Source: Tomocerus qinae
Taxonomy: Eukaryota > Arthropoda > Collembola > Entomobryomorpha > Tomoceridae
Length of the DNA stretch: 64,000 nucleotides
Assembly (NCBI GenBank): GCA_020055645.1
Contig: CM034547.1
Location: 34,664,909 to 34,728,908, forward strand
Direction: 5' to 3'
The notes beneath the pieces were generated by a model that saw nothing but the letters and a program-made list of their open reading frames with translations, made no database searches and was not told where the DNA came from. The translations under genes and the position numbers were made by a program. Below, piece after piece: positions 3,001 to 64,000 of the stretch. Positions within the stretch are counted from its first letter, which is position 1, and each line of letters starts with the position of its first letter.

Positions 3001-6000
3001 TTTGGCTTATCCTTACCTCTACTATGTACTCTTCGTCCTTACTGAACATGACAGCGGACATTATTCTATTGCTTCTTCTTCTGTTTGCTTTTTATTTTAT
3101 ATTTTTTCTGTTACTACCTAATAGCATCTAAATAGGACTACCCCGATCTCATCCTTCCAATATCAACCTCTATAAACAGATAGACAGTTTAAGTATGGTA
3201 ATTCCACATTGTAAGTAGCTGAATCATTCTTATATGGTATATCTATAAGTTGGTCACAGATAGAAATGAAGATAGCCAGATTAGCTTAATGATCGTTTGT
3301 GTCCCAGTATTTAGCTGGTGTAGTTTTATCCGACCAATGCTAAGCTGGCTTAAACTTTCGTTTATATTGTACGCACAAATGTACGCTATTGTCATATTTT
3401 ATGTATGTAATCGTTGTGCTACTTCATAAACCCACACATAACCATCTTCATATCATGTGCTAACAATACCCTTACAATGATCAAAAACCAAATCACCATC
3501 ATCACAAGAAATAAGAGATTGACAATTGGAATATGAACTCCAATCTCATACTCTGCTGCTCTGCTTGGTTTGATATTTTTAATAATGTAGTGCAATTTAG
3601 GAAACGTGGAGGCTGTTTATTGATATCTTTTCTACAAATTAAATATTTTTATTATACAAACAGATTTTGTGTATTTGAAACTCTGTATTTTTGAGTAGAG
3701 AAACTGTCAATCGATGTAGTATGATTTAAAATACCTGTAACTTAAGTATTTACAGTACAGAAATCAAAAAGGGATGGAAGGATATTTGAGGAGATGGATG
3801 GATGGAGAGGAATGGAGATGCTGGATGACTTGATAATATGTATAAATAGATATGTATGATCTGTGCACTAAAGCATTTGGCACGTAGGGTGTAGTTTGGT
3901 TAAAGAAAATTTGTTTTTGATTGGTGTGGTGTGATCCATGCGGTGATTGGTGTGTGCATGGATAATGCCTTCGATATAGATAGGGGATTTAGACAGTGAC
4001 TTGTGAAAAATCATAAAGAACACAAAAGGGCTTCTTTCTGTGAGATCCTTTGAAGGACTTCAGTTCAGTTTAGTTAGACTGATTGTGAGTTGTGAGTGAG
4101 TGACCAGCAGGTGATATATTCTTCCCTTTGTATCCACAACGATTATACAGAAATGGAATCCATGTTACTTATAATGCTCTTGTCACGATACCTTAACATG
4201 TATGTACCTACACTCTATGTGGCTGGCTTCTCTAAAACAGTACAGTAGTGCCATCAAGGGTGAATTGTATGCTAATGATTGATTTCAAATGACTATACAG
4301 CAAGTAACTACAATTATATGTACCTCTTGTTTAGATGGACGCAAATACATTAACTACATGCTAAAAAAGTAGTAAATAACAATTACACCATAAATTCTTA
4401 TTTATTAACTTGGTATTTTATGGTGATTTCTACTTGACAGGTAGATTTGCTAATTATGATGTAAACAATTGTCAATAATTATAGGGAAGAAATCCCTTAT
4501 GATTTCGCTTTTTTACTTTGTTATTATTATTATGACCACTGTTTTGCAACAATGCTAATAAAGTGCACACAGTACAGTTTTGTGTCGTAAAATTTTAAAT
4601 GCTAATTCCCTTAGTATAGAAGAGTAGGCACAGGTGCGAATAATAGTGTGTGTTTTATCTTTAATGTCTGTAGTAATATCTTCCGTTCCGTTATCTTCTT
4701 TTAAGTGGTGAGATTTTTTCTTTGTAGAATCATTTGCCTAGTATTTAGTAGGTTCCTACGGTAAACATTTTTATTTCAGTCTGCAATATTGCTTATCATA
4801 AGCTTTCATATCTCTTGTACACCTATTTTGATGTTGCAAACATTCTCATGCCATTATACTAATTTCATTTTATGTTGATGACAATAACGGATTTAGTTAT
4901 TCAGAAAGGATCAGTTTATGCAGAGGTAAGGAAGAAGGTAGCTAAAGCATGTTCTTTCAAATGTCATTTAGAACAGAAAGCTTATAAAGTAATACTAAGT
5001 ACATACACAGAGCAACGTACCTACATGTTCTAAAAACAGTCTGTGATGTCTTTAATCTGACTGTCAGGATTCGGGCAAGAGAAAAGTTGACTCACAATCA
5101 GTCAGAGTCTAAATACGAGTAGGTGGTAAGCTATAACTAATTTATATGGAATACGAAAGGCTAATACTGCATTTAACTTTGTAGCTAGCCTATGAAATAT
5201 GAAATGCAACTCTCTAAAATATTCTTTTCAATCTTTGTCATTGACTCATTTGATTATAGCAAGTAAAAGAAGGAATCTGAACAGAGACAAACGGACAATT
5301 CCACAGCTGCATTGTATTTCTCAAATTGTAAATGATGATCAGTCGATCGCCGATCTCTGACTGACTTAAGTAAAAGCAGCGTGTTGTATGCATCGCTTCT
5401 TATTGTCAGCTAATTCTATACTACAAATGCTACTTTTATTTTCATATAACAGCTGATAGGGTAGGTACTCAGTGTATACGGATATTATTTATTGCTTGGT
5501 ATCACTTAATCTTATATGAATGTTTAAAGTTCAGATTAGACAAATTCATAGCATAACTCACTGACTGCCTTGAGTGACAATGAAGTTGTGTCGAATCACT
5601 CAAATATTCTTTTGTCTATTCACATGGTATGTATACTTAATGTATTAGATCTGTGGTAATGCTAATTCTCTTTCATGGTCTTTGATCCGTGCATGAGCAA
5701 AGGAGTCAATATTCAATTTGTCTAAAATTATATCTCTAACCTAACTGTATGTACAAATGTAGCTAACACATTTTAGTATGCTATATCCGTGGTATCCGTA
5801 AAAAATAAATAGCAAATCGTACATCACCTACACATACAATTGGCATAACAGTTCATCCATTATTATTGTACCTTCATTGATGTGATGTACACACTTTCTA
5901 AAGCGTGTCACTGGAATAAATCCACATACTCTTTGTTCAATTACTTATTCACTCATGCAAATGTCCCTTGACTATTTATATCCTGCTATTCAATTTACAA

Positions 6001-6263
6001 TGTGTCACAGGACACATATCCTTAGTTTTACTTACCCACATTGGACTCATATCTTTTTCTGTACAACTGCCTCATGTTTACATGCTCATTGCTCAATAAA
6101 AGATCATCAGCTTTATAATATGCATTTAATTGTATAATTATGCTTTGAGTAATATTTTTCTCTTTCAACTGCTTTCACATTCGTGCTAAATCGTTCATGA
6201 AACTTAATTCAGTCACAGTCGATTGAACCTTTTATTAATTCTAATTTTATTTGTTCGTTTCAG
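1..6263. other. no recognisable exon: intron or 5' sequence upstream of the first visible CLCA exon
   Basis: This AT-rich stretch has stops in all frames and only short open frames, none resembling a known protein. I looked for the missing CLCA N-terminal exon (signal peptide plus a strand like GYxxIVVAI followed by a donor) and did not find it. The simplest reading is that the sequence lies inside the preceding intron and the first exon is upstream of the window. Confidence 0.6.
3768..3830. repeat. purine-rich degenerate GGAT tract
   Basis: On the plus strand the segment is almost all A and G with scattered T, and includes GATGGATGGATGG and GGAGAGGAATGG. It is a short, impure tetranucleotide-like tract in noncoding sequence. 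No function is implied. Confidence 0.55.
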
Positions 6264-6564
6264 GATTTAATCAGCCGAACATCCGACAATCTTTACAAGG
6301 CTACGAATGGACAGTCGTATTTCCGCCAAGTGTCCATCGTTCTCCCATCTAACTGGGCAACACCAAATTGCACTGGACAAACGGAACAGGAAGTTACAAC
6401 CGCAACTTACCAATCGAGTACTTCTGCAGACATTACTGTAACAAGAGACCACCCGGTGTACATTGACAAGCCGTGGACACTACAATATGGTCCTTGTGGA
6501 GTGCCTGGGAAAAAGATTTCTGTCCCTGTCTCCTTTCTCGCTAACAATCAAGACGACCTCAAAG
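6264..6564 (+). CDS. CLCA: CLCA exon A: N-terminal domain, first visible exon
   Basis: Follows acceptor TTTCAG and ends at donor AG|GTAAGC (phase 1). It encodes residues 1-100 of the fragment. The segment YFRQVSIVLPSNW corresponds to the YFKNVAILIPETW stretch of human CLCA1, and the later GPCG...SADI context also matches. NCT is a possible N-glycosylation site. By comparison with the family, about 50 residues carrying the signal peptide and the IVVAI strand should lie in an earlier exon. No such exon could be found in 1-6263. Confidence 0.9.
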
Positions 6565-45500: not shown

Positions 45501-48500
45501 TAAGTTAGCAGCAAAACTCGGTCTCTCTGTCTCACTCACTGAACTGGAGTTGGTTTGCTCCTACTAATGAGGAGCATGTACTTTCTATAGTATTAGTATT
45601 TTACTATTGAGTCAAGTCATGTATTCTTATGTAATGCCAGTTCCATTGGCTAACTATGTATATTTACTATAACACTTGTGTCATATACGTATTTACGTTA
45701 ATTTACTACGCTAGGAGTTAGAAGTTAGGACTTTCGGCCGGAGGCACTTTATCTGGAAAAAATCAGAAACTTTCAAACTGGCCTTATTGTGATAAAATAT
45801 ATCCCTGTACTTGTACCTATATGCCTAGATTCTGCATAGATATCATATTTCCGTAGTAGCAAGGTGTGTTTCAATATGTATCATATTAGATGTACACAAA
45901 GAACTGGCTTTTTTAAGGCTGAGAGTTGAAATAGCATCAACTTGTTCAAAAGTACGTGTGGTGCCTATTTATACGTGTGCTTTTGCAACTTGTTTGTAAA
46001 GCACTTGTTCGTTCGTTGCGGTTCGGTTCTGCTCTGGTGAATCTTCAGGTTCCAATCTGTCTCTGCGTGGCAGTTTTACCTGGCCGTTGTCTCATGTCTT
46101 TAGGAGGGGTGACTTTTTTCAAATGCTTTTCACTTTTGAGAAAATACTTGAGAAAATGTTTAACCCAAGTCGTATAATTTTATTATCTGGACTACATATT
46201 TCTATTTGCATGCACTACTTTTGATATTGAAATACTTGAATACCACCGCAGATGAGAATTTACAAAGCTATCATTAGCTACGTGCCTTAGTATTAATGAA
46301 ATTGATTAGCAAAGAATTTCTAGTGTTTTTCTTCTCAAATTACGTTGAGTTATTTTAGAATGTGTTTACATACAAGTCACATACTACCAAGTTTTTTGAT
46401 AGTATATTAGTATCAATAAGTTCATGTTGGTTTCTATAATATAAGAAACAAGCAGTTGTTTTATTCAGTTAAGTGTATCTTTGTATTAAGGAGATATTTA
46501 TCTTAACATCCATTGTGTAGGAATTAATGGCTCAAGTCAGTCCGTAAACAAATAAAAAGTCATATCTATATCATACTAATTGATTCTCTCGACTCTTGCG
46601 GCAAACGGTTGATAAAGGCTAAACTTCAAACAAGTGATGCGGTGCTGATGGAAGAAAAGGCATTTTTTATAATCACTTTCTTTATTAGTCGAACTGGACC
46701 TGCTGGACTAAAGGAAATACCAATTGTACTAATACATATAGAGTGTGGGTTGATATAAGCTATAGAAAGCCTAGCAAATAAAAACAGATAGAAAAGTATG
46801 GAAAATAGTAGAGTGAATAGGCTCTAAGGTCAAAAGCTTAAAAATGAGATGGTTACATGCGATCGGGAATATAATTGATACGTCCTGTCAGAAATATTAA
46901 TTTTTTCCTGGAATATTCGTAGCTTTGGGACAAGAGAAGGCACTAACTAATGAGAATGCATAATAAGCCCATTTTATACTCTGAGATAATCAATATCATC
47001 TTAAAAGAGAGTTTAAGCTAATACTAGATGAACCTCCACTAGGTACTTGGGCATCCTATAATTTTCTGTAGAAATGGGTACCTGCTCTAATACTTTATTG
47101 TTAGGTATACATAGTTAATGTGTTTAAGGTACTTTTTCTACTCACCGCATCCCACAAGGAAAATAGTTATATCTCCGTTCTTCACCTCGAGTTTATTTTA
47201 TATCAAATCCCAGTCTCCTAATCAAATGACAGAAAAACAGAAATGGGAAATGCGGATAAAAACTGTTTCACGGTTGAGTTAGAGACGGATAAAATTTTGA
47301 GAATTAAGCAGATGCTTGATTTGAGGTTGGCTCGGTTTGAGGATTGTCTGTAGGTTATGCGAGAACATTATTTATTCCAAATGGTATGTATGAGATATTG
47401 TATGATACTGGGAGTGATGGAGTTACCCAGCCTCAAAGTAAAAGTCTGTGGCCAGTTTAATACATTTTTGTTTTGGTTTAATTTGCTTACAGCCCGCCTA
47501 ATGGTTCGAGAATGGATTAAATTACGCTACGGTGTATTTGATGAAAATGGCTTCAGTCATGATGAAAAATACCCTGCCGCGTTTGTTGGGTCGAATGGGA
47601 AACCAGTACCGACGGCTTGTCATCTGAATCGGTAAGGAGTCATAATATCACATCAAATCATTAGAAAATTCTAGAGAAGTACCTTAGAATATGATAACTA
47701 CTGGGAGTAAGTACCTTTGAATAAATCCCAGTTTTATAATGAATTCAGTTCAACAAGAAGTTATCAGTCACTACCTACCTGAAGTCAAATCCAGGGAAGA
47801 AAAGTGTCTCAGTCCGTCAGTCTAAAATAATGATTATCATAAAAACAGGAGGAGTTCCTATCTTAATGTTTTAAACCAAACCTTATTTCCATCTCCTCTT
47901 GTATGCATAATTTGCTAGAGGCTCAATTTTCTATTATGTACTTTTCCCGAAGACTCACTGTTAATTTACAAAAAAAGTAGTAGATTTGGGAATTCTTAAA
48001 GCAGTACCTATCTTATTACTCTATCTATATGAAATATAACGTCCACAATTACGAAACATGTAGACATTACATTGAGGACAAGACAGACAACTCAATAGCA
48101 AGATCCAGATCCAGTTTTCTTGCAAATTACTTTTTATGGCTACTAAATCTCAACTACAATGCTCAGTAGGACCGCATACTTATATATGCATTGCTATATT
48201 GCTACCTTACAGATCAACCTGTGCAGATCCAGAGAAATGCGGTGAAGAGTCTGAAGCTCAGGGTGAAACGCACCATCATTCGTCTCATGTTCATGATGAT
48301 GTCGTAGGAGCAGCTACTTCAATGATGTCGCTACCACTTGATCCCAATGTAAGTTCGCTTCAGATGAAAAAATAAATTGTACAGCTAATACTCCAACTTT
48401 TTTCAGCACTCATTTGATATTCAAAAGAACCCATGTGTATACATATCAACAACAACTCTCTCCTAAATAAGTCTCAATTTCTGTAAAGGTGTGCCGTGTG

Positions 48501-51500
48501 GTGGGGTTTGAATTGGTAGTGATTACATAAACTCTAATGGAGACATGAATAAAATAATAGCCATTTTATACCCAAAGAAAGCTACTTATTGCAAATTTTT
48601 TAATTTTTTTTCTAAATCCTACACAATGAAGTACTGAAAATGTCTAGCCAAATAATTGAATATGAGTTAGCTTAGCACAGATTTATTTATATTTGCACTT
48701 TGATAAATATTGTCCATCTAGTATATACTAGATTTCCAAACTGATGAATGATAGTGAGTTACGTAAAGTGATAGTTCAAAATACAAATATAAATAAATTA
48801 AAGGTGTATGTAGTGCCCTGCCCTAGTAGATAGTGATTTTATTTAAATATATTATTGGCCTTAGAGGTGTAATCTAATGCAAAAGCCATTAAAACAAAAT
48901 CATTACATAAAACACTTTAATTACTTCAGTGAAATGAAAGTGCATCTGTTTTCAAGTAAATGACCAAGCGTGTGCAGAGAACAGAGCGCTGTTCGCCATG
49001 TCAGTTGATTCCAGTTCAGTTCACACCCATATTTTACTGGATTGTGAAGGAAAAGATAACATTAAATGAATTGAATGCTGTAGGTAGATGGGCCTTTGCA
49101 AAAGGCTAGGCAGGTAATTTTTTCCTAGTGCGGGTTTCAAGAAAGGAAATTCTGAGGGAGTTAAATGAAATCTGATGCTGTCTTAAGTACATTAGCCTAC
49201 CTAATAGAATATTATTATTGTTAGGAGTACGGTCCAGTCCACTCACACTCTACTTAATGACCAGCCTTATTGTTAATGTTTAGTTTGCTACTAAAGAATC
49301 AGTAAGTTCTTTGTGAACAACAGGATTCTGCATTCTTTTCAAGATATTAAAATGGTTGAGCTTGATTAGATTACAAACAGAGCAAGACAAAAGCATCTCT
49401 TCGTTCGCCCTCTTTCTCTGAAATTTATGTTATCGTCTTTTATTATTGTTTCAAATTTTTGGCTAAGCAAATCTTACATGATTCATACCACACCACATGG
49501 CTCCACCCTAAAGAAAAACAGGAATGCTTATGGATGGCACAAAAACTACTTAGCAAAAGACACAATCTATGAATATGCACACGTGATAGTTATAAAATCA
49601 CAGTACAAAATATTATAGGTAATAATAATAAGACGAATGATATCTTGTCTTGTCCATGTTTGTTTTGTGCATGGCAGAATGATACGGAAAAAATGTTACT
49701 GTCTCAGACTTGCCATTCGAAATTTATTTATTTAGATTAGGGAGGACAGCAGAGGCTGGACTGAACTTTTAAAAGAGTTGGCTCGCTTTTAAAAGAGAAC
49801 AGGAGTTTTGTATAAAATGTAGATAGCCAAGTCAGCTACGTAATAAATATCTCCTATATGTGGAGAGGAAAGAAGGAAATCCATAAATTACCGTAGGTAC
49901 CAACTCCAAATCAATTGGAAATTGAAGCAGAACGTAAAAAGTCAAAAGCACTGCAACCCCTTAACACTATAAGTGTAAAGATGGATAGATATGTAGATTT
50001 CCAATTTAATATTTGGTTAGGATAGGGTAGGGAGCTAGTTTTGTAGTTGTAGAGCACTATTTGAACCTGAGTGATTGAAGGCGTATGTGTCTTGTAATTG
50101 TAAGTATGGGATAGTGTATTATTGGATTGAGATCAATTCTGAATTATAATGTTATTGAATCTTTACCATAGATAGTATAACTTAATATAATGGATGTTCA
50201 TGGTGCGATCTAGTTTAGTATTATATATTTTTGTTACATTTCCAACGTGCTGTGTATGCCTGGAGTCTGAAACTCATAAATTAGTCTGCGAGTGTGCGAG
50301 TGCTGAGCTGAGGAGAGTCTTACAGACTCAGAACACGATATATAGTATATAACCTAAGTATATATGGTTTAAAGCGTAATATCCACTAATGCAAATGTAA
50401 CGTCCGTAACTCACCTGTTGTTTTATTCTGTTCTAAAAAAGGTAAACGAATTCTGCAATGAACATACTCACATCCGAACAACGCCTACTAAGCACAACTT
50501 TTTGTGTGACGGTCGGAGCATTTGGGAAGTTATGAAACAGCATGAAGACTTCACTAAGCTGTAAGTCAAATTTTTACTTAAATATTAGTACCTATATACT
50601 TACCAACTACCTACCCTAACTAGGGGAAGACTTAAATGCTTTAATTTAGTATGGAACGTGTATTTATTTACTTACGTTTAGCCACCTGCCTAAAACAGTC
50701 AACGAATTCTGTTTAAAATTTATTTATCTGTAATATAAATTAGAGTAAGCTCTAGTTTGCTGTCTTCTGAGACAAGACACGCACATTTTCCAGCAGTAAG
50801 TATCTAATAACTATTTACACATGTAGATGAGGGACCTACAATTAAGTTTGTATAAAACAAAGATGGGCAAAAAATTCTTTGTTTAATCTCCTCGAGTAAA
50901 TTGGAGTAGAAAAGAATGAATGTGTTGTCATACTGTTAGCAAAACAACATGTGTGAATATAAAGTGATGTTTGGCTTGACTCCTTGACTTCTCTCTAGAA
51001 TTTCGGAGGATAATTTATGCCGACTATCAAAAATGAATTGCCCCAGGATGGAACTTTTATTTACAAAGTTATGATTTCAGAGTTAGCATGTATTTAAAAT
51101 AAGAAGGAGAAGCAACTTCATTTATGAATATCATGATATTGCCAAGACAGACCAAATCAAGTTAGACTGATTATCATTTGATTTTGTTATAGCATTTCAT
51201 TAAATTCAATTCAGTTGCGTATGTATTGCAACAGAATATAAGTGCAGTTCAGATCGAAAAGCTGCATAAATTCAGAGAAAGATTATTAGGTTGATAGGAT
51301 TGAGTCTAGCTGCCGGACAGATATTTGAACGTTTGTTCTTTGTAATGCAAACTCTGTTTGGTACTTTATATGCTACTCATGGTGATATCATTTAGCAATT
51401 TTCCTGTGGCTAAGAAATCCGATCACGACATGACATCCTTATTTAAAAGGAAAATATCTATAGGCAATGACATAAAGATAACATTCTCATCTCTTCGTGA

Positions 51501-54500
51501 CACTTACACATAACATAACGTAACATAAGCTTAGCATATCATAACTTTCTTCGATAGCTTACCTACTTCGCAATCACATTTACTTTATTTACTATCTACC
51601 TGTAGTTACGTGCTGATCAATAGCAGTGCAAAAATGGAATGCAGTTCTGTGTTCGCTCAAATAAATAATATTGAGACTTCTATTCTGCGAGTGTACAGAC
51701 TTGTATTGTGCTGGGGCACTTACGTGATCCTTACAGACAAGTTTGGCTCTCCTTTTCTTTTCTATGGTACAAATAGCAAACACAAAAGAAGTAGACACAC
51801 TCTAACAGAACATATTCAAACCGAACAATACGACAACTTTTGTTATGCTGCATACATTACTATTATTATTGTTACATCACAGAAAAGTTATATGTCAGTG
51901 TAGGCTGAAAGACATGATTAGCTTTAATCAATATAAATTCCATTTATATGTATGTACATGAGCCACGGGTAGCAACCATTAGATGCGTTAAATACTGAAA
52001 TATTTATGTGTTCGATACAATACCTAGCTATTTTGGACATCCTACTTAACTAATCGTAAGTAGACATGTAACTTGCATTTTTATAGAGAGTGTGTAAGCT
52101 GGTTGTAAATACACAAACAGATGCCCTGTACTCACTCAGCTACCTATTAGTTATGCATGCCAAGAGTGAAAAAACGACAGGAGGGAAGATGTAGTGGACT
52201 AGATATGTATGATATGAGGAATTATTTATTTATGCTCATAAATAAAAATTAATTGTTTTTTCGTTACTATATTAGGGATGACAGTCAGAATCAGAATACT
52301 GTGAATGGGAAGGAGAAGCCACACTTGGAATCAACCACTGTACCTGGCTCAACCCCCAAATCGATAATTTCCGCTCCTGCACCTGTCTTCTCTTATGTTA
52401 CGGCCAAGTCTCATCGGATGATCTTTCTCTTGGACAGAAGTCGGGCTATGAATCAAAATGTAAGTGAAACGACCGTGTTTTAAGTCTATTAGTCATCCTT
52501 CTTTGGCAGTAGCAGACCAATTGTGCAACTGCTTCACAATTATTATTACTAATAGTAAATATTAGACGATACATTTTTGGCTTGTATGTGCAACTGCAGA
52601 TTTCATTTGCATCTACTTATTATATCGTGACTATTTTGTTTAGTTCATTACCAGTAGAGTAGAGTTGAATAAAAAAAGCAAAGAAAAATGAAAGTGGGTA
52701 CCTACTTTTAATATACTCGCAATGGGAGTATATTTCTGTCAGATGCATTTTTTATATTCCTAGAAACACTACCATACATATATAAACTGAATTCTCCGGG
52801 GTATTAAAACTTTTGAGTGCCCAAGATTAATTTGAATATCAACGGTCAACGTATTTATTACACTGGTAGCAGAAAAGCCATAAATTAAAAGATATTGATT
52901 AACCGCATTTCCGATACAGACTCGGATAAAATCTTGTAAATGAGGTCATGCATTACGACATCATCTAAATGCCTGCAAGGAAAATTGTCATTTATGGTAG
53001 TGGATTGCCTTGCTGTTCACTAAATGCATTGGTTCGTGTCACGAATATTTTTTTTGAATAATGAGTATAGCGATAACTATCAAATACAGAATGAAAATGA
53101 AAACATCCAATTGAAGTTAGTACTTCTAGTGAGCACTTATTTTTGATGAGTTTTTTAAGCAGAGAATTGTACACGGAACTGTAAGGATTTTATTGTATTT
53201 TGTTTAGAATCGATGGAAGAATTTGCGATTGTCGCTCTTCCGGATGTTGCAGTATCTGCCCAACGGAGTGGAGCTAGGGATCATTTCTTACACTAACGAC
53301 AGCGTAATTAGTCTTCCGTTGACAATCACCACCCCTCATAACCGAGACAACCTTCATGGACGAATTCCTCCAAGACCGCTTTCCACCGGCTCTGAAGATT
53401 CCTGCATCTCTTGTACCTTGAAAGCAGCCGTTAAGGTATTCTTACTTTTTATCACTAAAGTGCATTAGGTTTTATGGAAGATGTTTTGTTTCCTGCTCAT
53501 CCAGTAGTCTTGTACTGCGACGACAGTAATGGTCGACAGAGTGCAATAGGCACGTATCTTTAATCCTTTGTGAAGTCAGTCAAAAGACAAAGCAGAAAGT
53601 AAAGCCAAGATGTGCGGTAGTCCATCCAAGTCGAAAGAAGACTTGTTAAAAGACGATTGTACAGTAAAGTGCAGTATAAAAGACTAGTTTAATGTTCTTA
53701 TTCGTGTTGGGTTGATTTGGAGAGAGATGCAGTGCAAGGATATTTCCTTCATTACGTTGTATTACGTGGATTATTTTATTATTATTGAAGAAGCAAAGTT
53801 GAGAATTATCATGGAAAATAAATTGCAATTTATGACTTCGACCACATTTTACTGCTACCCACACGACGAAAGTAACACAATGAGCATTGAACACCAGGAA
53901 GAAAATAGCTTGAAAATCATCACAAAAGCATTAGCTTCTGGATTCTACTAATATTTATTCTTTTATAGTGTTATGTAGTAAAGCAGGTATCTCGTCAGTA
54001 AATAAAGCTGGTTTTGTTAGATTCATTATACTGTACAATAATGTACATCTCCTACGCATGTTGTTGTAAGACGTGCTTTTTCCTATCTAAATGGCTAGCT
54101 CGAGCTAAACAAACTGAGTCTTTTGTTTTATTTTTCTTAATGAGAACTAATGATTAGGAGAATAATAAGCACAGGGAGAGACAGAGAAGAAAGTACTATG
54201 GGTTTAGCAATAAATAAACAGTGTTGTGGGATGTTTGTAATTAGGCAGTATCTTACCTGTTATGTAACAATGAATTCTGTACTTGGATATTTAGTGGCAG
54301 AGATAAGAACAGATGTAGACCAAACATAAATACTACTGCAATAAAGGAAATTTTGAACTAGTAAATTATTGAAGTAGAATTTGAATGTAGGAAGTATGGA
54401 AAAGAACTGACAGAAGACGTGATGTCTCAAGTTACGTAGCTAACTGTTATAGTTTATGAGTTTGTGTATCGGACATGTTGTTCAAACAAATAATAAAATT

Positions 54501-57500
54501 CTGTTGCATTTTAGCTGATCAAGACATCGAGTGAGCATATTGGGCCGGCAACGATAGTTTTGGTGAACGGATCTCCTTCGCGATTGAACAGCCGAGAGTG
54601 GGACAAGATAATGAAGATTATTGACAACACACCGCTCCGCGTCATTGTCATCACGTACGCAAATACGAACGAGTCTTCAGGAGGAGGGCATCAACTTGTT
54701 CAATTGGCTCAGTACGGTGGATTCTACAAGGTGCCCGACACGGCCGACGGCAATCACAATCTAGAGCAAAATGAGATTCTCAACAATATCTTCCTTCAAA
54801 TCATCAGCGACAATGTGGGCACTCCTTTGAATAAGGTGAGTTCACGTTATTGACATTGGTCTACAGAGCAGACTACTGCTTGGTGTATATAGGAGATAGG
54901 TATACACTATTTACTATAGGTGGACCAACAGCCGTAGTTACTGGGTAGTTTATGTGCAGGAGATGATCTAAGTTCTCTATAAATCTTTCTCGTGTAAGTG
55001 GCTGAAGGAGCTAAGTGTTTATACTGGAGTCCCTGCTTAAGTAAATATACATATATTATACATAACTACTTGTAATGTAGTGAGCCAAGCCTAACTGAAG
55101 AAAACTTCTTCGGCAGGACAACCTCATAAACCAAACGGAATCGAATGGAGTGAAGAAGAGTTAGCTACAAGACAACTCGATCGAGTATCTCTTCTACTTA
55201 CTTATGTGTCTTTGAAATGAACAGTCGTAAGATAATAAATTAACTCCACCAATCGACTCTACCTTTATTATAATAGTATATAGGATATAGAATCCAAGCA
55301 ACCCTTTGGGAATTTATTCACAACTTTTCTCGTACCAGGCTTCTTTTCCTTATCTGTCTACAATGTGTTACTTTATAGTAACACAAGTTGTATTTGGATT
55401 ACTAAAGAAACATCTTTCGAATAGGTAAAAGTAATAGTCCAGCTTACCAAGTTGTTAGTCTAGTGTAGACCACTCCAGTTTAATGTACTTGGATATGTTT
55501 ATTTGAGTATGTGATGTCCTTCCAGTTAAGTTCCACCTATACAATATAATAAGTAAGGCGGTAGAGGATACCGGGAAAATAAACTGATAGCCTGACTTTT
55601 ATATCTACAATTCTTATCTACTAAGTACACTTATACTGAGAGAATATCGAGGATGGGGAATACAATCAAACCTTTTCCACAATACTAGTTACTACACCCT
55701 TCCTTCAAAGAAGCAAATGAATCATTTTTCAGATCAGATGCTTATCAATATTTTCTTTAGAAATCGAATGGAAAATGGCCATCTGTTCTGGGGAAGTTAT
55801 AGCTTAGAGTAACCGCTTTGCATTTTAGTAGTTGAGAATCACGTCCACTTTCCATTACTTGAAGTGTATTCTTGAACTGCATTCGGAAAACAAATAGTGT
55901 AGACTTGACTGTGACTATTTATAATAATGATACTTGTTGGTAACGAAGAAGCATTGTTGATGATAATTAGCCATTTAGCAAAGAAACAAATGAAAAATTA
56001 GTGCAAGTGTAGAGCTAGTTGCAATACTTAAAATGCAACAAGTGGTTGTTGCAGAGTGGGTTTTGTAGTAAAACTGTTTCAGGTTCACATGGAATTTGTA
56101 GTCTCATCACGCCTCAATTAAGTGTATTGAAATTGAAGTAGGTATTTAATGAGCTGTGCGTAAAATTTGCGTTCTGTCTAACATCTCTTCAATTTACAAC
56201 CAAGTAGCTTCCTATGTGAAATTCAATTGAATCTAAATACATTGTTAAGGAGCTAGACTCATTTGCATTTTTATCCAATGAATTAATTTGTTTTCTGCAC
56301 CATTATATAAATTCGAAATGTGTTTCTACAGGTTTACGAAGCAGTGCACTGGCCAGACGCTGAATGGCAAAGTCGAGGGAAGTTCACAATTGAAGACAGT
56401 CTGGGACGCAACACTTACGTGACAGTGACCACCGAGGAGAATGGAGATGTTGATGGATTGCAATTAGTCAGTCCGACGGGAAAAGAATTCGATTTACCAT
56501 TTCATGCTGAAGGGCTTCTGTACAACAGGATTCCTGGTCTTAGTGAGGTATGTCACTTCACTTACATGCATCGCATAATAAACTAATTCATCCTGTGCCT
56601 CTACTATCTTAATTCACTCATAACTATGTACACTAAGTGTTTAATATCTTATCTCTTTGTGTTTCTCCTCTAAATTATTCTTGTAACTGTAATAAAATAG
56701 TAATTATGCCCACCTTAGAAAAGTTATTAGCTTATCTGTTACGTTTTACTACAAGTGTAAGTGAACCTTTCAAAAATTATTTTTAGCACCACAGCGAGTT
56801 GCGTCGTAAACTTATTAACTAACTCATCTCATGTAATTTTAAAACTAAGCCTGACGTCTGTCTGTGGTGTATGGGATTGCTAATACTACCGTTGTTTTGC
56901 CATCTTGTCCCTTGAGGGTTCTCTTTCATAATTTCTCTATTATGATTTATACCTTATTGTTTTGCCCCGTGTCGTTTCTATCTACTAAAACTTAACACAG
57001 CGTGATTACTATGTACTAATGATTATGCAGTAACATATATAGCAAAACAAATGTAATTATATTATTTATTACTTGGTTATTTTTAGGCTGGTATCTGGAC
57101 TTACATTGTTAAATTCTACCAAAACCAATCACAACGTCCCATCACCGTAGATGTTATTACCGAGTCTCGCAAAACGGAATCAATCTCTGTCAAGTTCTGG
57201 AATAAAGTTGTTAAACAGCAACAGCAGCAGACGCCGGAAACATCAGAAGCTTCGTCTGCGTTACAGGATAGCCAAAATGATGTGGTGGAGGCAGAAGTTG
57301 TCTTGCTCTACGCTCAAGTTTTGCAAGGGGAGCTCCCTGTTCTTAATGCCAATGTCACTGCAACAATTACCCTTCCTGGCCATCCTCAGCATGGGCCTAG
57401 CACTATTAGCGTTCGATTGTTGGACACGGGAAGTGGAGGTAATAACAATGAAACGTTAATTCTCTCTAGATTCTTGTAGCGTGGAGTACAATGAGTATTA

Positions 57501-59758
57501 GACGGTTTAGGATGCTATGCTTCGTATGCACAATTAGCATTTGGTTAAGATTAGACTGACAATAGATCGCCATGCAGGTACAAAGACTTACCTTAGAACG
57601 TAATTCTACTAAAGCTATTACACAAAATTACTTTTGATTTTATGGAGCGTAAAAAATAATTTATTTTTCTCTTTCCCAAAGAGCTATTCCATTGCCATTA
57701 GTGTCTACCCTACAGCTTAGATAAAAATGCGGTAAAAAACGCATGAGAGAAATCAGCAAAGCTTTTAAATCTTCTTTTCATTTTACGACTTGCATGGAAA
57801 TAGACTGTAAGCAATTGTATAGGCTAGTTGTAGGGTGTAATCTACAGTAGAGTTTTGAACTATGGTAATTGACATACTTTTTATACTTTTCCAACGCAGA
57901 TCCTGACATTACGTGGGGAGATGGAATTTATTCGGCTTATTTCACTCAATTGGGCCCAAATCCTGGATTCTTTAGTGTGAGCGTGCACATTGATGATAAT
58001 AATGGACAAGCTGTCGTACCGGTGCATACAAATATCTCACGTGGATTTCTGGGTAAGTTTATATCTATACTTATACTATTACAAACGTATTGTGTTGTAT
58101 CTCTGCCTGAATCGCTATATAATTCGGTTAGGGAATTATTAGTCCTCTGCAGAGTTAAATTCTCGACAATGAAGAGATTAACGCTTCAAAAGGAATTAGT
58201 TCGTTAGCGGAAAATGTCAATTTCATTCTAAGCATGTCTTTTCTATTTTCAGACTTTGCTACCTGTTGTGGAAGCAGCATACCTCACATTGCAACAATTC
58301 CGACTGGTTCCTTTCAGAGGAAAATTGCAGGTCCTTCTTTTGAAATAAAGAATGGAGTTCCCTTTGGTGATGATCCTTATCCTCCAGGCCGAGTGACTGA
58401 TTTGCGTGTGGACCGAATTGTTGATTCTACTTCAGAAGTTAAATTAAGCTGGACTGCTCCTGGTGGAGATTATGACAAGGGAAAAGGTAAACATTGGAAA
58501 ATTCCTGTGAATTACATTTAAACACAAAAAAATTCTTTGTTTTATTTGCTAATATTTTCATGTTAATTTGACAGCTGCCCGATATGAAATTCGTTGTTTC
58601 ACCTCTCGCGAAGCTCTGATGAACGATAATTTTGGAACCCAAGGGATTTTGGTTCACAGCTCGTTAACTCCCGAACCGGAGGAATATGGCGTGCGTCAAA
58701 GCTGCTCAGTTGGAGTACCATGGTCAAACGAGATATTTTACTACGGGATAGTTTCAATTGACAGCGCTCTGAATCGTGGGAAAGTATCTAATCTCGTCTC
58801 TGTTCTCATCAAAGAGACTCCTACATCAACACTAAAAATAATGGATGCTTGGGAAGATGATGCTTTAGTTTCCAACTTAACATCTTCACGATCCCTGAAT
58901 AAAAACGACAATGTGTTTCAAGCTGGAGCCACTTGGTTCCGCGGATTAAGTGAAGTTGAGTTGTACATTATAATCGCTGGAGCTGCTGCATTTCTGCTTC
59001 TCGTGTCTACATTCATCCTCGTTTTGGTTTGCGTGAAAAGGAACAAAAACAAGAATAACGAAGCCCCACCCGCCTACCATAATATCTACGTAGGAGTTGC
59101 AAATGGGAAAGGACAACCGACTCAGCCTCCTAAAGATGCAATTGGTTGCTGTTGGGAAAACGAGAGCAATTCCACAGATCCAAATCATCAGACTGCAAAT
59201 CAAAAGCTCTCCGGACTGAATGGCCCTTACTTAACAGATTCGACTGCTTCCTACATCCCTGCATCAGCTCTCTGTGCCCCGATGCAAAATGGCTCAATTT
59301 ACCGGGATATGTACGCCGGATCTGGATCTACAACTCACACACACACTCATGACTCTAGCTCCGTAGATTCAAAACCCTCCGATGGGGGTAGCAATGAAAC
59401 GGTTCATGTTTCCGATGGTCACAACACTCCCGCCTCTTTCTACGCTCCTTCCCAAATCTCTCAAAGAAATATCAACAATATGAATCTCAGCTACGATCAC
59501 AACAATCTGAACCACAACCATAACAATCTGAGTAGGGATAACATTTTGATCCGCGGAAGTGAATTCAGTCCTTCTGACGATGATGAAGGAGGATTTAAGT
59601 CTCAGAGGAGAGATATGGATGGTTTCCATAAAATTGTTCCCATGCCAAGTAGTGACTATGATAGTCCGTCAATAATGAATGGAAGCACCTACGGAGGCTC
59701 CGTTATGTCAATACCTAATAGTAATAAGAAACGAACGAGACATATTTCGTTCGTGTAG
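6264..59758 (+). CDS. CLCA: CLCA-family (calcium-activated chloride channel regulator) membrane protein, 12 visible exons, 5' end missing
   Basis: Joining exons 6264-6564, 47493-47631, 48213-48348, 50442-50560, 52276-52459, 53208-53435, 54515-54835, 56332-56547, 57087-57438, 57900-58052, 58253-58486 and 58575-59758 gives an open frame of 1188 residues plus TAG. Every intron is GT-AG and every junction keeps phase. In order the product has the CLCA N-terminal domain (1-230), a VWA domain (about 278-470), beta-sandwich regions (about 477-716), an FnIII-like domain (about 758-880), one membrane helix (about 924-948) and a 240-residue cytoplasmic tail. Landmarks shared with vertebrate CLCAs are LRYGVFDE, IPGL, the LLD-G-G segment and PPGRVTDL. 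CLCAs modulate TMEM16-type chloride channels and cleave themselves through HExxH. Here that motif is R106-E-W-I-K110 and the VWA metal site is degraded, so catalysis and metal-dependent adhesion are probably lost. Roughly 50 N-terminal residues, including the signal peptide, are not found. Confidence 0.93.
20625..20682. repeat. 58-bp perfect palindrome (29-bp arms, no spacer)
   Basis: Every base from 20625 to 20653 pairs with its mirror from 20654 to 20682, with the centre inside CATATATATG. The match breaks at 20624/20683. The arms contain TACTGGGACTCC and its complement GGAGTCCCAGTA. A separate 14-bp palindrome, CAATATGCATATTG, lies seven bases further on. Confidence 0.95.
20689..20702. repeat. 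14-bp perfect palindrome
   Basis: CAATATGCATATTG reads the same on both strands. It sits just beyond the 58-bp palindrome and is followed by another TTGCAATATT word. Confidence 0.85.
29556..29583. repeat. hairpin with 13-bp perfect arms and 2-nt loop
   Basis: CGTGAAAATGTCA (29556-29568), then GT, then TGACATTTTCACG (29571-29583). Related words, GTGAAAATGTCTGCTGACA and CTGCTGACATTTCC, recur within the next 90 bases. Confidence 0.9.
30133..30157. repeat. hairpin with 10-bp perfect arms
   Basis: AATACGTAAT (30133-30142) and ATTACGTATT (30148-30157) are exact reverse complements separated by five bases. A second, weaker hairpin (ATGCGTA/TACGCAT) follows at 30202-30222. Confidence 0.85.
30300..30393 (+). 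ncRNA. tRNA-like segment with A-box and B-box-like motifs (tRNA relic or SINE head)
   Basis: TGGCGTAGTGG at 30307-30317 fits the RNA polymerase III A box (TRGCNNAGYNGG), and AGTTCGAGTCC at 30379-30389 is one base from the B box (GGTTCGANTCC). CAGGA-GTTCGAG-TCCTG folds into a 5-bp arm. The box spacing (72 bases) is longer than in a normal intronless tRNA. The D-arm pairs badly and no convincing anticodon arm or acceptor stem was found. A working tRNA is unlikely. Confidence 0.3.
47493..47631 (+). CDS. CLCA: CLCA exon B: degenerate metalloprotease motif
   Basis: Acceptor TTACAG at 47492; donor CG|GTAAGG. Encodes residues 101-146. The stretch MVREWIKLRYGVFDE aligns without gaps to the FVHEWAHLRWGVFDE of human CLCA1. 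Both zinc-binding His are replaced (R106 and K110), while the Glu, Gly and distal Asp of the motif remain. Phase 1 matches exon A, and the residue spacing to exon A is close to that in CLCA1, so no exon seems to be missing between them. Confidence 0.93.
48213..48348 (+). CDS. CLCA: CLCA exon C: Cys-poor, His-rich insert region
   Basis: Acceptor TTACAG, donor AAT|GTAAGT, ending in phase 0. Encodes residues 147-192. Vertebrate CLCAs have a conserved Cys-rich hairpin here. This copy keeps two Cys (TCADPEKCG) and then has an acidic and His-rich stretch (HHHSSHVHDD), followed by a segment matching the SIMFAQHVDSIVEFC region. The hairpin is thus shortened or rebuilt. Confidence 0.88.
50442..50560 (+). 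CDS. CLCA: CLCA exon D: end of N-terminal domain
   Basis: Acceptor AAAAAG, donor CT|GTAAGT (phase 2). Encodes residues 193-231. NEFCNEHTH and SIWEVMKQHEDF align to VEFCTEQNH and STWEVIRDSEDF of human CLCA1, including both flanking Cys. The acceptor has a weak polypyrimidine tract, but the phase and the homology fix the junction. Confidence 0.92.
52276..52459 (+). CDS. CLCA: CLCA exon E: linker and start of VWA domain
   Basis: Acceptor TATTAG, donor AAT|GTAAGT (phase 0). Encodes residues 232-293. A Ser/Thr/Pro-rich linker leads into beta-strand RMIFLLD. The first metal-site motif, DxSxS in active VWA domains (DKSGS in human CLCA1), reads D285-R-S287-R-A289, so the second Ser ligand is gone. 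Confidence 0.92.
53208..53435 (+). CDS. CLCA: CLCA exon F: VWA domain middle
   Basis: Acceptor GTTTAG, donor AAG|GTATTC, in phase 0 at both ends. Encodes residues 294-369. GVELGIISYTNDSV matches the VWA strand GSWVGMVTFDSAA, and the end of the exon aligns with the SGGTSICSGL region that holds the metal-site Thr in CLCA1. In this copy that place reads TGSEDSCISC, so which residue replaces the Thr is uncertain. Confidence 0.9.
54515..54835 (+). CDS. CLCA: CLCA exon G: VWA domain C-terminal half
   Basis: Acceptor TTTTAG, donor AAG|GTGAGT, in phase 0 at both ends. Encodes residues 370-476. ATIVLVNG stands where CLCA1 has EIVLLTDG, so the third metal-site position is Asn387 instead of Asp. LRVIVITYAN and LVQLAQYGGFYKV match the closing VWA strands and helix (IIHTVAL, LEELSKMTGGLQTY). 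NES is a possible glycosylation site. Confidence 0.93.
56332..56547 (+). CDS. CLCA: CLCA exon H: beta-sandwich after VWA
   Basis: Acceptor TCTACAG, donor GAG|GTATGT, in phase 0 at both ends. Encodes residues 477-548. GKFTIEDSLGRNTYVTVT matches GTVIVDSTVGKDTLFLIT, and LYNRIPGLSE matches the AYLQIPGIAK segment of human CLCA1. Confidence 0.93.
57087..57438 (+). CDS. CLCA: CLCA exon I: beta-sandwich with polyQ linker
   Basis: Acceptor TTTTAG, donor GGAG|GTAATA (phase 1). Encodes residues 549-665. AGIWTYIV aligns to VGTWKYSL. A short polyglutamine tract (KQQQQQTPE) and a Ser/Gln-rich insert precede LPVLNANVTATI, which matches SPILRASVTALI. The exon closes with LLDTGSG, matching LLDNGAG. NVT and NQS are possible glycosylation sites. 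Confidence 0.92.
57900..58052 (+). CDS. CLCA: CLCA exon J
   Basis: Acceptor ACGCAG, donor CTGG|GTAAGT, in phase 1 at both ends. Encodes residues 666-716. WGDGIYSAYFTQ aligns with KDDGVYSRYFTT of human CLCA1, and GFFSVSVHID with GRYSVKVRAL. The basic triplet near the end of this segment in CLCA1 (RRRVI) is absent. Confidence 0.91.
58253..58486 (+). CDS. CLCA: CLCA exon K: start of FnIII-like domain
   Basis: Acceptor TTTCAG, donor AAAG|GTAAAC, in phase 1 at both ends. Encodes residues 717-794. YPPGRVTDLRV and VKLSWTAPGGDYDKG match FPPGQITDLKA and INLTWTAPGDDYDHG of human CLCA1, the typical start of the family's FnIII-like domain. Confidence 0.94.
58575..59758 (+). CDS. CLCA: CLCA exon L: FnIII end, transmembrane helix, long cytoplasmic tail
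   Basis: Acceptor TTGACAG; the frame runs to TAG at 59756-59758. Encodes residues 795-1188. RYEIRCFTS and FYYGIVSIDSALNRGKVSN match the YIIRIST and IAIQAVDKVDLKSEISN stretches of CLCA1. A hydrophobic helix of about 25 residues (about 924-948) is followed by a basic stop-transfer segment, KRNKNKN. The cytoplasmic side has APPAYH (PPxY, 959-962), GCCW, a Thr-His run from a CA microsatellite, Asn/His-rich repeats, an acidic SDDDEGG patch and a basic C-terminus ending in RHISFV. The topology expected from the family and the helix is type I. Confidence 0.95.
59333..59351 (+). repeat. CA microsatellite inside the CLCA coding tail
   Basis: A short CA run (CTCACACACACACTCATG) encodes alternating Thr and His in the cytoplasmic tail. 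The flanking residues are low-complexity Gly/Ser and Asp/Ser, so the length is probably tolerant of change in steps of six bases. Confidence 0.8.
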
Positions 59759-62230: not shown

Positions 62231-64000
62231 CTGAGGAAAAAACAAAATTAAATAGTTTACATAATGACCCAGTGGATTCTATTACACCAAATGCGTATTA
62301 GAAAAGAGTTGAAAACCTCTGGACAGAGTTGAATCCCTCTGCAGTGTGAGTGTGGATATTAAGAACATCATAAGAACAACTTCCTCCTTCCATATCGAGA
62401 CGGGTGAATCTGAGACTGATGGCCCCGGTAGGTGGATTGATAACAAAGGTGTTCAGTTCATTGTTGCCGTAACTGCCACTTTCTGGGTAGGAGAAAGTGG
62501 AGCTGACGTTTCCAACGTGGAAATGCTTCAATGTGAGCTCAGATTGTCCTTGTTCTCCAAGACCTTGGAAAAGAAGAGTGAATTCGCCTCCGTTGTCTGA
62601 TGTGTTAGAGACTAACGTGATGAAGACCATTGGTCCAGGGACAAGAGTGACGGAGTTATCTGGGTCACTATTGAAACACAGATTACCATCAAATAATTTT
62701 CAGGCCGATCTAAGTAGGATGTAATACAGGAACTTAACACAAATACTAATTATGTATTTACACTCGAGATTTGCGGGTTGTTTTGCCTAAAGTAAAGTCA
62801 ATTTCGGTGACTTCGAGGTAAGTTCCAGGTCCAAATCCTTCGCTGCTGTCAAGGGTCAATCGGACAGTTTCTCTAAAATTAGCTCTTACTGACCAAGTGC
62901 ATCGTTCATTGGGTCCGTTCGCACCATCCAGTTGGTAACCAATTTTTCCAGATGATCCGACAAGGACACCACCGCATCCCTCAACTAAATCGATTCAAGT
63001 ATAATTAATGAAACTCTTTAATACTACAATAATGTAGACTACTATATTTATACTGTCCATTGTCCACTTTAAATATCAAGAACTTACGTTGTTCAACATA
63101 AGTGGAGTTGTCTTCTGGCTCAGGAACTAAACAAATGACAAATTAAATTAAGATTATGTCTGAATGTTGAGCATCTTTAAAATATTGCAGTTTAAAATAC
63201 TCACGGATGGCTTCTCCCAACCATTCGGAGAAATGGGAAGTTTCTGTGTACACTCCTGGGAAGCCAGGACGTCCACATCCAAGACCCCAGGACATGATTC
63301 CGCAGACATTGGAGTTGGATTCGGCAGAGCACAAAAGTGGGCCACCTATGTCATTCGAATACAAATTTGCAGTCTAATCTGATTTGCATATGTCTAATAC
63401 AATTTGCAAATTCTGCTTTACTGTTAAAAGATTCTTACCAGAGTCTCCAGTGCAGAAATCGACTCCATTTCCTCCAGCACAAACCATAGAAGGAGTAACA
63501 GCATCTCCACCGTAAGCTGTGTTACACTCATCATCAGAAACAACTGGGGCAACGGCCTTTCTCAAAGTACCGGAGGCAGCTCCCTGTTCAGCAGTTGCTC
63601 CCCATCCAGCGATTGTTGCCTCAGCTGTTCCAGAATTGGGGGATTAGTTGCTTAACCCATTCTTCATAATGCAAGATATTGGTACAAGGAGGGATATTTC
63701 TCACCTGAGGGTTCGAAACCAGCGGTAGGGAAAACAGCAGGCCTGACATTATCATTGAATTGAAATGGAGGAAGTACTTGCATCACTGCGATATCATTTT
63801 CAAAGTCAGCAGCGGCAGGCCTAACATTACGAAGGTTTATTAGTTTTCCATGTCATGTAAAAAGCTATTACAGTTTACTATAAATTCTTACGAATCGTAT
63901 AATGGATGTTGGACAACTCGGACAACTTGTCTGACTTGTTCGGATCCTTCGGTGGAATTAAGAGTGTGGTCTCCAGCAACGATATTATAGTCAGCGGGCC
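62116..64000 (-). CDS. secreted trypsin-type serine protease with two C-terminal CUB-like domains, 8 visible exons, 5' end missing
   Basis: Minus-strand exons 64000-63892, 63820-63705, 63624-63439, 63345-63205, 63126-63088, 62984-62762, 62667-62317 and 62230-62116 join in frame into 425 residues plus TAA. Residues 1-183 are the S1 (chymotrypsin-fold) protease from just past the expected catalytic His region. The catalytic Asp is D45 (NDIAVM), the nucleophile is S136 (GDSGGP), and D130 occupies the S1-pocket position 189, which in this family means cleavage after Lys or Arg. A short acidic linker (PEPEDNSTYVEQ) leads to two CUB-like domains, about 198-306 and 307-425. The seven introns are only 71-103 bp. 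The signal peptide, activation site and catalytic His lie upstream, outside the window. A secreted digestive, immune or developmental protease is likely from the family; the substrate is unknown. Confidence 0.93.
62317..62667 (-). CDS. protease exon g: end of first and most of second CUB-like domain
   Basis: Acceptor CAATAG, donor CAGAG|GTTTTC (phase 2). Encodes the CUB closing strands (VFITLVSNTSDNGGEFTLLF) and then a second domain with ISLRFTRLD and SCSYDVLNI, the latter fitting the CUB signature CxYDxLxI. Without splicing at 62316 the frame would stop at 62298. Splicing to 62230 restores a complete domain. Confidence 0.87.
62762..62984 (-). CDS. protease exon f: first CUB-like domain
   Basis: Acceptor ATTTAG, donor GAGT|GTAAAT (phase 2). 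Encodes EGCGG at the domain start and NERCTW, the first Cys pair of a CUB domain (C200 and C225), then RLTLDSSEGF and YLEVTEIDF. Confidence 0.88.
63088..63126 (-). CDS. protease exon e: 39-base linker micro-exon
   Basis: Acceptor GTTTAG, donor CAAC|GTAAGT, in phase 1 at both ends. Encodes only an acidic linker, PEPEDNSTYVEQ, with one glycosylation sequon (NST). Supported by phase and by good splice sites on both sides. Because 39 is divisible by three, skipping it would keep the frame. Confidence 0.8.
63205..63345 (-). CDS. protease exon d: GGP to C-terminal helix
   Basis: Acceptor ACATAG, donor ATCC|GTGAGT, in phase 1 at both ends. Completes GDSG-GPLLC. Also encodes IMSWGLGCGRPGFPGVY, with the Gly residues that shape the S1 pocket, and the final helix FSEWLGEAI. 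An extra Cys (NVCG) near LLCS may replace the usual partner of Cys201, since the normal Cys136 is absent. Confidence 0.93.
63439..63624 (-). CDS. protease exon c: IAGWG strand to GDS
   Basis: Acceptor GAACAG, donor CTG|GTAAGA, in phase 1 at both ends. Encodes ATIAGWG, DDECN, MVCAGG and DFCTGDS. The upstream frame has a stop (TAA) just before the acceptor, which together with phase fixes the start. The Asp two residues before the Cys is the S1-pocket residue. Confidence 0.92.
63705..63820 (-). CDS. protease exon b: catalytic Asp
   Basis: Acceptor TGTTAG, donor TCAG|GTGAGA (phase 1). Encodes FENDIAVMQV, with the catalytic Asp, and NVRPAVFP, matching the usual trypsin strand. Confidence 0.92.
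63892..64000 (-). CDS. protease exon a (partial, cut by window end)
   Basis: Encodes YNIVAGDHTLN and RVVQHPLY, typical of trypsins just after the catalytic His loop. The exon continues past 64000. Donor TTC|GTAAGA, phase 2. Confidence 0.9.

What the first reader, a model, noticed from the sequence alone, without database searches (positions are those of the whole stretch)
47493..47631. CLCA with both zinc-binding histidines replaced (HEWAH becomes REWIK)
The segment aligns without gaps to the catalytic motif of CLCA metalloproteases, and flanking residues (LRYGVFDE) are strongly conserved. Both His ligands are changed, to Arg and Lys. This predicts loss of zinc binding and of self-cleavage, while the fold and later domains are kept without stops, so the gene looks like a maintained pseudoenzyme rather than a pseudogene.
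Basis: partly seen in the sequence, partly recalled or inferred. Interest (0 to 1): 0.7.

Follow-up and report, generated by a model that had tools for sequence, protein, structure and literature searches.

The report
CLCA gene lacking its protease site
This animal gene makes a large cell-surface protein of the CLCA family whose built-in zinc protease site has been replaced; the other CLCA genes found in the same genome lack that site too, so this is a known kind of protein and not a one-off oddity.

Summary
An exon at 47493-47631 encodes ...ARLMVREWIKLRYGVFDE..., with Arg and Lys where active CLCAs have the two His of HEWAH. It joins in frame to a CLCA exon 41 kb upstream and to ten exons downstream: 12 exons, 11 GT-AG introns, 1188 open codons ending in a transmembrane segment and a tail; the first coding exon was not found. 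The spliced protein matches PF08434 (E 8.1e-33) and, end to end, TIGR00868 (E 9.7e-68). The 'maintained pseudoenzyme' reading is supported: omega = 1 is rejected, and no second HExxH exon was found in the window.

It is not unique. I assign the 15 PF08434 matches in this genome to 11 loci, and none of the 11 keeps HExxH: REWIK, REWAK, HEWAK twice, and ALWAQ/NLWAR/NLWAQ/TQWAR/KLWAR in the rest. All four that keep the Glu have Lys at the second His. The VWA metal site is also incomplete. Lenart et al. 2013 already reported both substitutions as frequent in CLCAs. New member of a known kind, of modest interest; the family-wide absence of HExxH is the more useful fact.

The parts
6264..6564 (+). 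Exon A: start of the CLCA_N domain
   Evidence: PF08434 positions 22-127, E 1.4e-16; cag|GAT...AAAG|gtaag
47493..47631 (+). Exon B: substituted zincin motif REWIKLRYGVFDE (REWIK at 47507-47521)
   Evidence: joins exon A in phase 1 through a new Ala codon
48213..48348 (+). Exon C: start of the Cys-rich region
   Evidence: AG/GT borders and consistent phase
50442..50560 (+). Exon D: end of the Cys-rich CLCA_N region
   Evidence: PF08434 match at window 50289-50558, which runs across the intron end
52276..52459 (+). Exon E: start of the VWA domain, MIDAS position DRSRA (start chosen by phase among candidate acceptors)
   Evidence: PF13519 on the spliced protein, 29.3 bits against cut-off 27
53208..53435 (+). 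Exon F: middle of the VWA domain
54515..54835 (+). Exon G: end of the VWA domain, VNGS
56332..56547 (+). Exon H: beta-sheet-rich region
   Evidence: TIGR00868 end-to-end match
57087..57438 (+). Exon I: beta-sheet-rich region
57900..58052 (+). Exon J: beta-sheet-rich region (GDGIYSAYF)
58253..58486 (+). Exon K: stretch where the usual cleavage junction would lie (CCGSSIP) and start of the fibronectin-III-like region
58575..59758 (+). Exon L: rest of the FN3-like region, hydrophobic segment VELYIIIAGAAAFLLLVSTFILVLVCVKRNK (transmembrane by eye, no predictor run), polar tail of about 240 residues, TAG stop

Best explanation
The gene encodes a single-pass membrane CLCA protein whose N-terminal zincin domain is kept as a fold but not as an enzyme. 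Shown from sequence: both zinc His are Arg and Lys; the Glu and the GxxDE part of the motif remain; the gene is intact from exon A to its stop; and none of the 11 CLCA loci found in this genome has HExxH. Inferred: it binds no zinc, is not self-cleaved, and stays at the cell surface in one piece as a receptor or scaffold. The Arg and Lys probably pair with the retained Glu and Asp, putting positive side chains where the zinc ion sat and holding the old active site shut. The second His-to-Lys change is most simply older than the split of the four paralogues that keep the Glu; His1-to-Arg arose on this gene's line and again in the 35.04-Mb paralogue, or arose once and was reversed.
For: 12 exons, 11 GT-AG introns, 1188 open codons. 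Full-length family match, TIGR00868 E 9.7e-68 over residues 1-868, and PF08434 E 8.1e-33. 0 of 11 loci have HExxH. A DNA pattern for HEWAH-L-R-[YWF]-G had 0 matches in the genome, while a pattern for the [H/R]EWxK form, used as a positive control, found exactly the 4 known loci and 0 in its reversed control. The four Glu-keeping loci are one side of a branch with 99/99 support. Omega below 1: 2dlnL 57.3, 51.2 and 56.3 for the window gene against three paralogues. Single changes H155A or E156Q stop self-cleavage and current activation in human CLCA4 (PMC11231702, passages); E165Q stops cleavage in human CLCA2 (PMC10669480, passages).
Against: No expression, protein or metal-binding data. The first coding exon was not found in 9,908 bases upstream plus window 1-6300. 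Synonymous changes are saturated (t reaches the bound of 60 in 4 of 6 pairs), so omega values are not measurements, and the test covers the whole divergence, not only the time since the His were lost. The window row has the longest branch of the tree (1.61) and its place among the four Glu-keeping rows is open. The salt-bridge idea was not modelled. In murine CLCA4a the E-to-Q change only impairs cleavage, and other proteases could still cut the protein.
Confidence: 0.85

Rival explanations
1. The gene is a decaying pseudogene that still has an open frame.
For: Both His, MIDAS positions and the stretch of the usual cleavage junction differ from the canonical form, its branch is the longest in the tree (1.61), and its first coding exon was not found.
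Against: 1188 open codons and 11 canonical introns; omega=1 rejected in all three pairs with the window gene; the same kinds of substitution recur in other paralogues.
Confidence: 0.04
2. Another exon or gene copy supplies HExxH: a mutually exclusive exon in the 41-kb intron, an assembly error at the motif, or an HExxH CLCA gene elsewhere that the searches missed.
For: The intron is 40,928 bases long, and no RNA or read data were available.
Against: Four exon-B queries found only weak second hits in the window (best E 0.74); the motif regex found only exon B in the window; a separate locus carries REWAK; the PF08434 search of the genome led to 11 loci, none with HExxH; HEWAH pattern 0 in the genome.
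Confidence: 0.04
3. The domain is still a metalloenzyme with altered ligands.
For: Glu and the GxxDE part remain; two paralogues, HEWAK, keep one His. Lenart et al. say some substitutions may let a protease partly retain properties such as zinc binding.
Against: Arg and Lys are not expected to take part in zinc binding (Lenart et al.); a single His change abolishes cleavage in human CLCA4.
Confidence: 0.04
4. The protein is still cut into two chains, but by another protease in trans.
For: Human CLCA2 E165Q is cut in trans by wild-type CLCA2, and cleavage of murine CLCA4a with the E-to-Q change is only impaired.
Against: None of the 11 CLCA loci found keeps HExxH, so no CLCA partner is apparent, and the usual ALY junction is not seen: the region reads CCGSSIP here and CCGHEVP in the 99.16-Mb paralogue.
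Confidence: 0.12

Closest known systems
CLCA proteins with substituted HExxH sites (Lenart et al. 2013, PMC3650047; abstract, passages and sections 6 and 7 seen)
   Same: CLCA_N domain with His1-to-Arg and His2-to-Lys, both called frequent in CLCA_N there; loss inferred about five times independently
   Different: In the parts seen, no gene with both changes as REWIK is named and no genome is described as wholly without HExxH; its figures and supplements were not seen
Active vertebrate CLCA1, CLCA2, CLCA4 (passages of PMC10669480, PMC9007345, PMC11231702)
   Same: CLCA_N, VWA, beta-sheet-rich and FN3 order; a transmembrane end as in CLCA2
   Different: They have HEXXHXXXGXXDE, a full MIDAS and a known cleavage junction; here the motif and MIDAS are incomplete and no such junction was recognised
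Inactive ADAM metalloproteases
   Same: Zincin-type domain kept without catalysis (as described by Lenart et al.)
   Different: A different metalloprotease family; no comparison was run here

Membership tests
CLCA family (defined by the CLCA_N domain, Lenart et al. 2013) | CLCA_N domain (PF08434) | tested here: met
   114.5 bits against cut-off 25.6, residues 1-231 to profile 31-261 of 266
CLCA family (defined by the CLCA_N domain, Lenart et al. 2013) | VWA domain after CLCA_N | tested here: met
   PF13519 29.3 bits against cut-off 27; PF00092 21.4, below its cut-off 23.8
CLCA family (defined by the CLCA_N domain, Lenart et al. 2013) | Beta-sheet-rich and fibronectin-III regions | tested here: inconclusive
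   TIGR00868 aligned through position 861 of 863, but no Pfam FN3 match
NCBIfam TIGR00868 (hCaCC subfamily) | Score over the curated cut-off | tested here: not met
   228.8 bits against 900.85: related, not in that subfamily
Active zincin / self-cleaving CLCA | HExxH zinc-binding motif | tested here: not met
   REWIK
Active zincin / self-cleaving CLCA | GxxDE part of HEXXHXXXGXXDE | tested here: met
   GVFDE
Active zincin / self-cleaving CLCA | Canonical cleavage junction (such as QNR/ALY) | tested here: inconclusive
   No ALY at the corresponding stretch (CCGSSIP); placing it rests on a recalled vertebrate sequence
Active zincin / self-cleaving CLCA | Zinc-dependent cleavage | not testable with these tools
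   needs protein
MIDAS-dependent TMEM16 regulator | MIDAS (DxSxS, T, D) | tested here: not met
   DRSRA in place of DxSxS; VNGS where a recalled TDGE would stand; the T was not placed, because no PDB alignment could be obtained

The most novel reading that the evidence does not exclude
The animal has turned its whole CLCA family into zinc-free surface receptors. In the Glu-keeping branch a basic side chain at the second His position stands in for zinc by pairing with the retained acidic residues, and long cytoplasmic tails now carry the signal that cleavage once did.
Probability: 0.25. Interest if true: 0.5.

Novelty: new member of a known kind. Interest (0 to 1): 0.3.

Why it matters
In human CLCA2 and CLCA4 self-cleavage is needed for their effects on calcium entry and on chloride channels (passages). 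A lineage that keeps eleven CLCA loci, none of them with an intact protease motif, would be a natural test of what the CLCA fold does without cleavage.

Tried and rejected
A second HExxH exon in the 41-kb intron: exon-B queries and a motif regex found none. Long repeats, tandem arrays and tRNAs in the window: none at the settings used. PDB relatives by sequence: 0 for the exon A frame, for the exon J frame and for the spliced VWA. Relatives in other collections: 0 confirmed of 69 pattern hits in genome contigs and 0 of 46 in viral contigs; these collections are prokaryotic and viral, so this says little about other animals, and no other animal's CLCA sequence could be examined. Pairwise dN/dS was spoiled for the C1:99.16 row, apparently by a stop codon that shifted the codon register (identity fell to 10-13%), with that exon's border reset, replaces it. 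In one search exon A was taken one base too long (to 6565), which broke the frame; corrected. The first coding exon was sought and not found. The species is not identified; a mitochondrial search did not complete.

Full report
Observation. The exon at 47493-47631 is real in form: acceptor gcttacag, donor gtaaggag. It reads RLMVREWIKLRYGVFDENGFSHDEKYPAAFVGSNGKPVPTACHLNR after an Ala codon made across the splice. Active CLCAs read HEWAH at this place: HEWAHL in human CLCA2 (PMC10669480, passages) and HEWAH at residues 163-167 in chicken CLCA1 (PMC9007345, passages); the full motif is given as HEXXHXXXGXXDE for all mammalian CLCAs (PMC11231702, passages). Here the two His are Arg (CGA) and Lys (AAA); the Glu, the Gly and the Asp-Glu remain.

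Gene. Exon A (6264-6564) and exon B match adjoining stretches of PF08434, 22-127 and 128-151, although an intron of 40,928 bases separates them. Twelve exons with 11 GT-AG introns and consistent phases give 1188 codons to a TAG at 59756-59758. The start of exon E was chosen by phase among several candidate acceptors. The spliced protein without its tail (873 residues) matches PF08434 (E 8.1e-33) and PF13519 VWA_2 (E 1.4e-6), and TIGR00868 from residue 1 to 868, profile 54-861 of 863, E 9.7e-68, though below that model's strict cut-off. No Pfam FN3 match was reported. After the FN3-like region come a hydrophobic segment and a polar tail; no transmembrane predictor was run. The first coding exon was not found in 9,908 bases upstream plus window 1-6300.

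Family in the same genome. The window lies in a 334-Mb assembly of 115 contigs, at G000:C2:34664909-34728908. PF08434 gives 15 matches there and none in 14 control genomes; I assign the 15 to 11 loci. Motifs read from fetched DNA are: window REWIK; C2:35.04 Mb REWAK; C2:29.32 HEWAK; C1:99.16 HEWAK; C1:49.63 ALWAQ; C1:36.30 NLWAR; C1:74.54 KLWAR (frame broken just after); and four neighbours on C5 at 20.381, 20.375, 20.369 and 20.362 Mb, NLWAR, NLWAQ, TQWAR and NLWAR. The motifs at 20.375 and 20.369 are split by an intron and rest on my splice reading. So 0 of 11 have HExxH; 4 of 11 keep the Glu, and all 4 have Lys at the second His; 9 of 11 have Lys or Arg there, 2 have Gln. A DNA pattern for HEWAH-L-R-[YWF]-G has 0 matches in the genome; the pattern for the Glu-keeping Lys form finds 4, exactly the loci known, and 0 in the reversed control. 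Whether the paralogues are intact genes was not tested beyond the exons read.

History. An unrooted tree of 11 rows places the four Glu-keeping rows on one side of a branch (99/99) and pairs C2:35.04 with C2:29.32 (97/98); 4 of its 8 inner branches are open. His1-to-Arg therefore needs two changes on this tree: two gains, or one gain and one reversal. The second His-to-Lys change is shared by all four. The window row has a long branch (1.61), so its exact place within the four is open.

Constraint. Pairwise codon models on 152-175 codons reject omega = 1 for the window gene against three paralogues (2dlnL 57.3, 51.2, 56.3). Synonymous sites are saturated (t at its bound in 4 of 6 pairs), so only the direction is meaningful, and the constraint is averaged over the whole divergence.

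Other sites. The VWA metal site, given as DxSxS, T, D, reads DRSRA in exon E, and VNGS in exon G where I recall TDGE in human CLCA1. Paralogues also depart from DxSxS: DRGKL at C1:49.63, DRGRI at C1:36.30, EETGN at both other C2 loci, EDSEN at C1:99.16 (read by eye). In human CLCA4 the MIDAS changes S316A and T383A, tested in the isolated VWA domain, ended channel potentiation. The stretch of the usual cleavage junction (QNR/ALY in chicken CLCA1) holds CCGSSIP here and CCGHEVP in C1:99.16; that correspondence rests partly on a vertebrate sequence I recall.

Mechanism. Because H155A or E156Q alone stops self-cleavage and current activation in human CLCA4, loss of both His should do the same here; this is inference, and murine CLCA4a with the E-to-Q change is only impaired. 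I think the protein acts uncleaved at the cell surface, as a scaffold or receptor, with Arg and Lys paired to the retained acids in place of zinc. The last step is a proposal that was not modelled.

Known or new. Lenart et al. 2013 (PMC3650047; abstract, passages and sections 6 and 7) report HExxH in 72% of CLCA_N members, His1-to-Arg and His2-to-Lys as frequent in CLCA_N, and about five independent losses. PMC9007345 (2022) says that only one study of the motif's phylogenetic distribution had been published, citing Lenart et al.. Five literature searches (20 of 59, 17 of 17, 20 of 40, 12 of 76 and 8 of 8 papers listed) showed no later study of CLCA pseudoenzymes in invertebrates, within an open-access library and judging by titles and abstract openings. 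The window gene is therefore a new member of a known kind.

Changes made on checking.

Noticed in passing
window 58575-59758; L020 about 3558-5846 (minus strand): The cytoplasmic tail holds PPAYHNIYVG; the tail of the C1:99.16-Mb paralogue holds SPLYNVYVN. A shared N-[IV]-Y-V core after a hydrophobic segment may be a signalling motif; the alignment of the tails is otherwise weak.
   Followed up: partly
window 6565-47492: A 41-kb intron sits between exon A and exon B of the CLCA gene, while in the C5 paralogues the corresponding exons lie within a few kilobases.
   Followed up: partly
L028 about 2252-2320 (C1:74.54 Mb): The motif exon of this paralogue continues in another frame right after KLWARFRFG, so it may be a pseudogene or hold a sequence error.
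   Followed up: partly
window 62298-62699, minus strand: Open frame of 133 residues that reads like a CUB-type domain by eye (recalled pattern); Pfam gave only a weak FAD_binding_6 match, E 0.1.
   Followed up: partly
L016-L018 (C5 20.36-20.38 Mb): Tandem cluster of four CLCA loci, none with the catalytic Glu; three show VWA starts LDGGL, LDGGL and LDRGS in place of DxSxS.
   Followed up: partly
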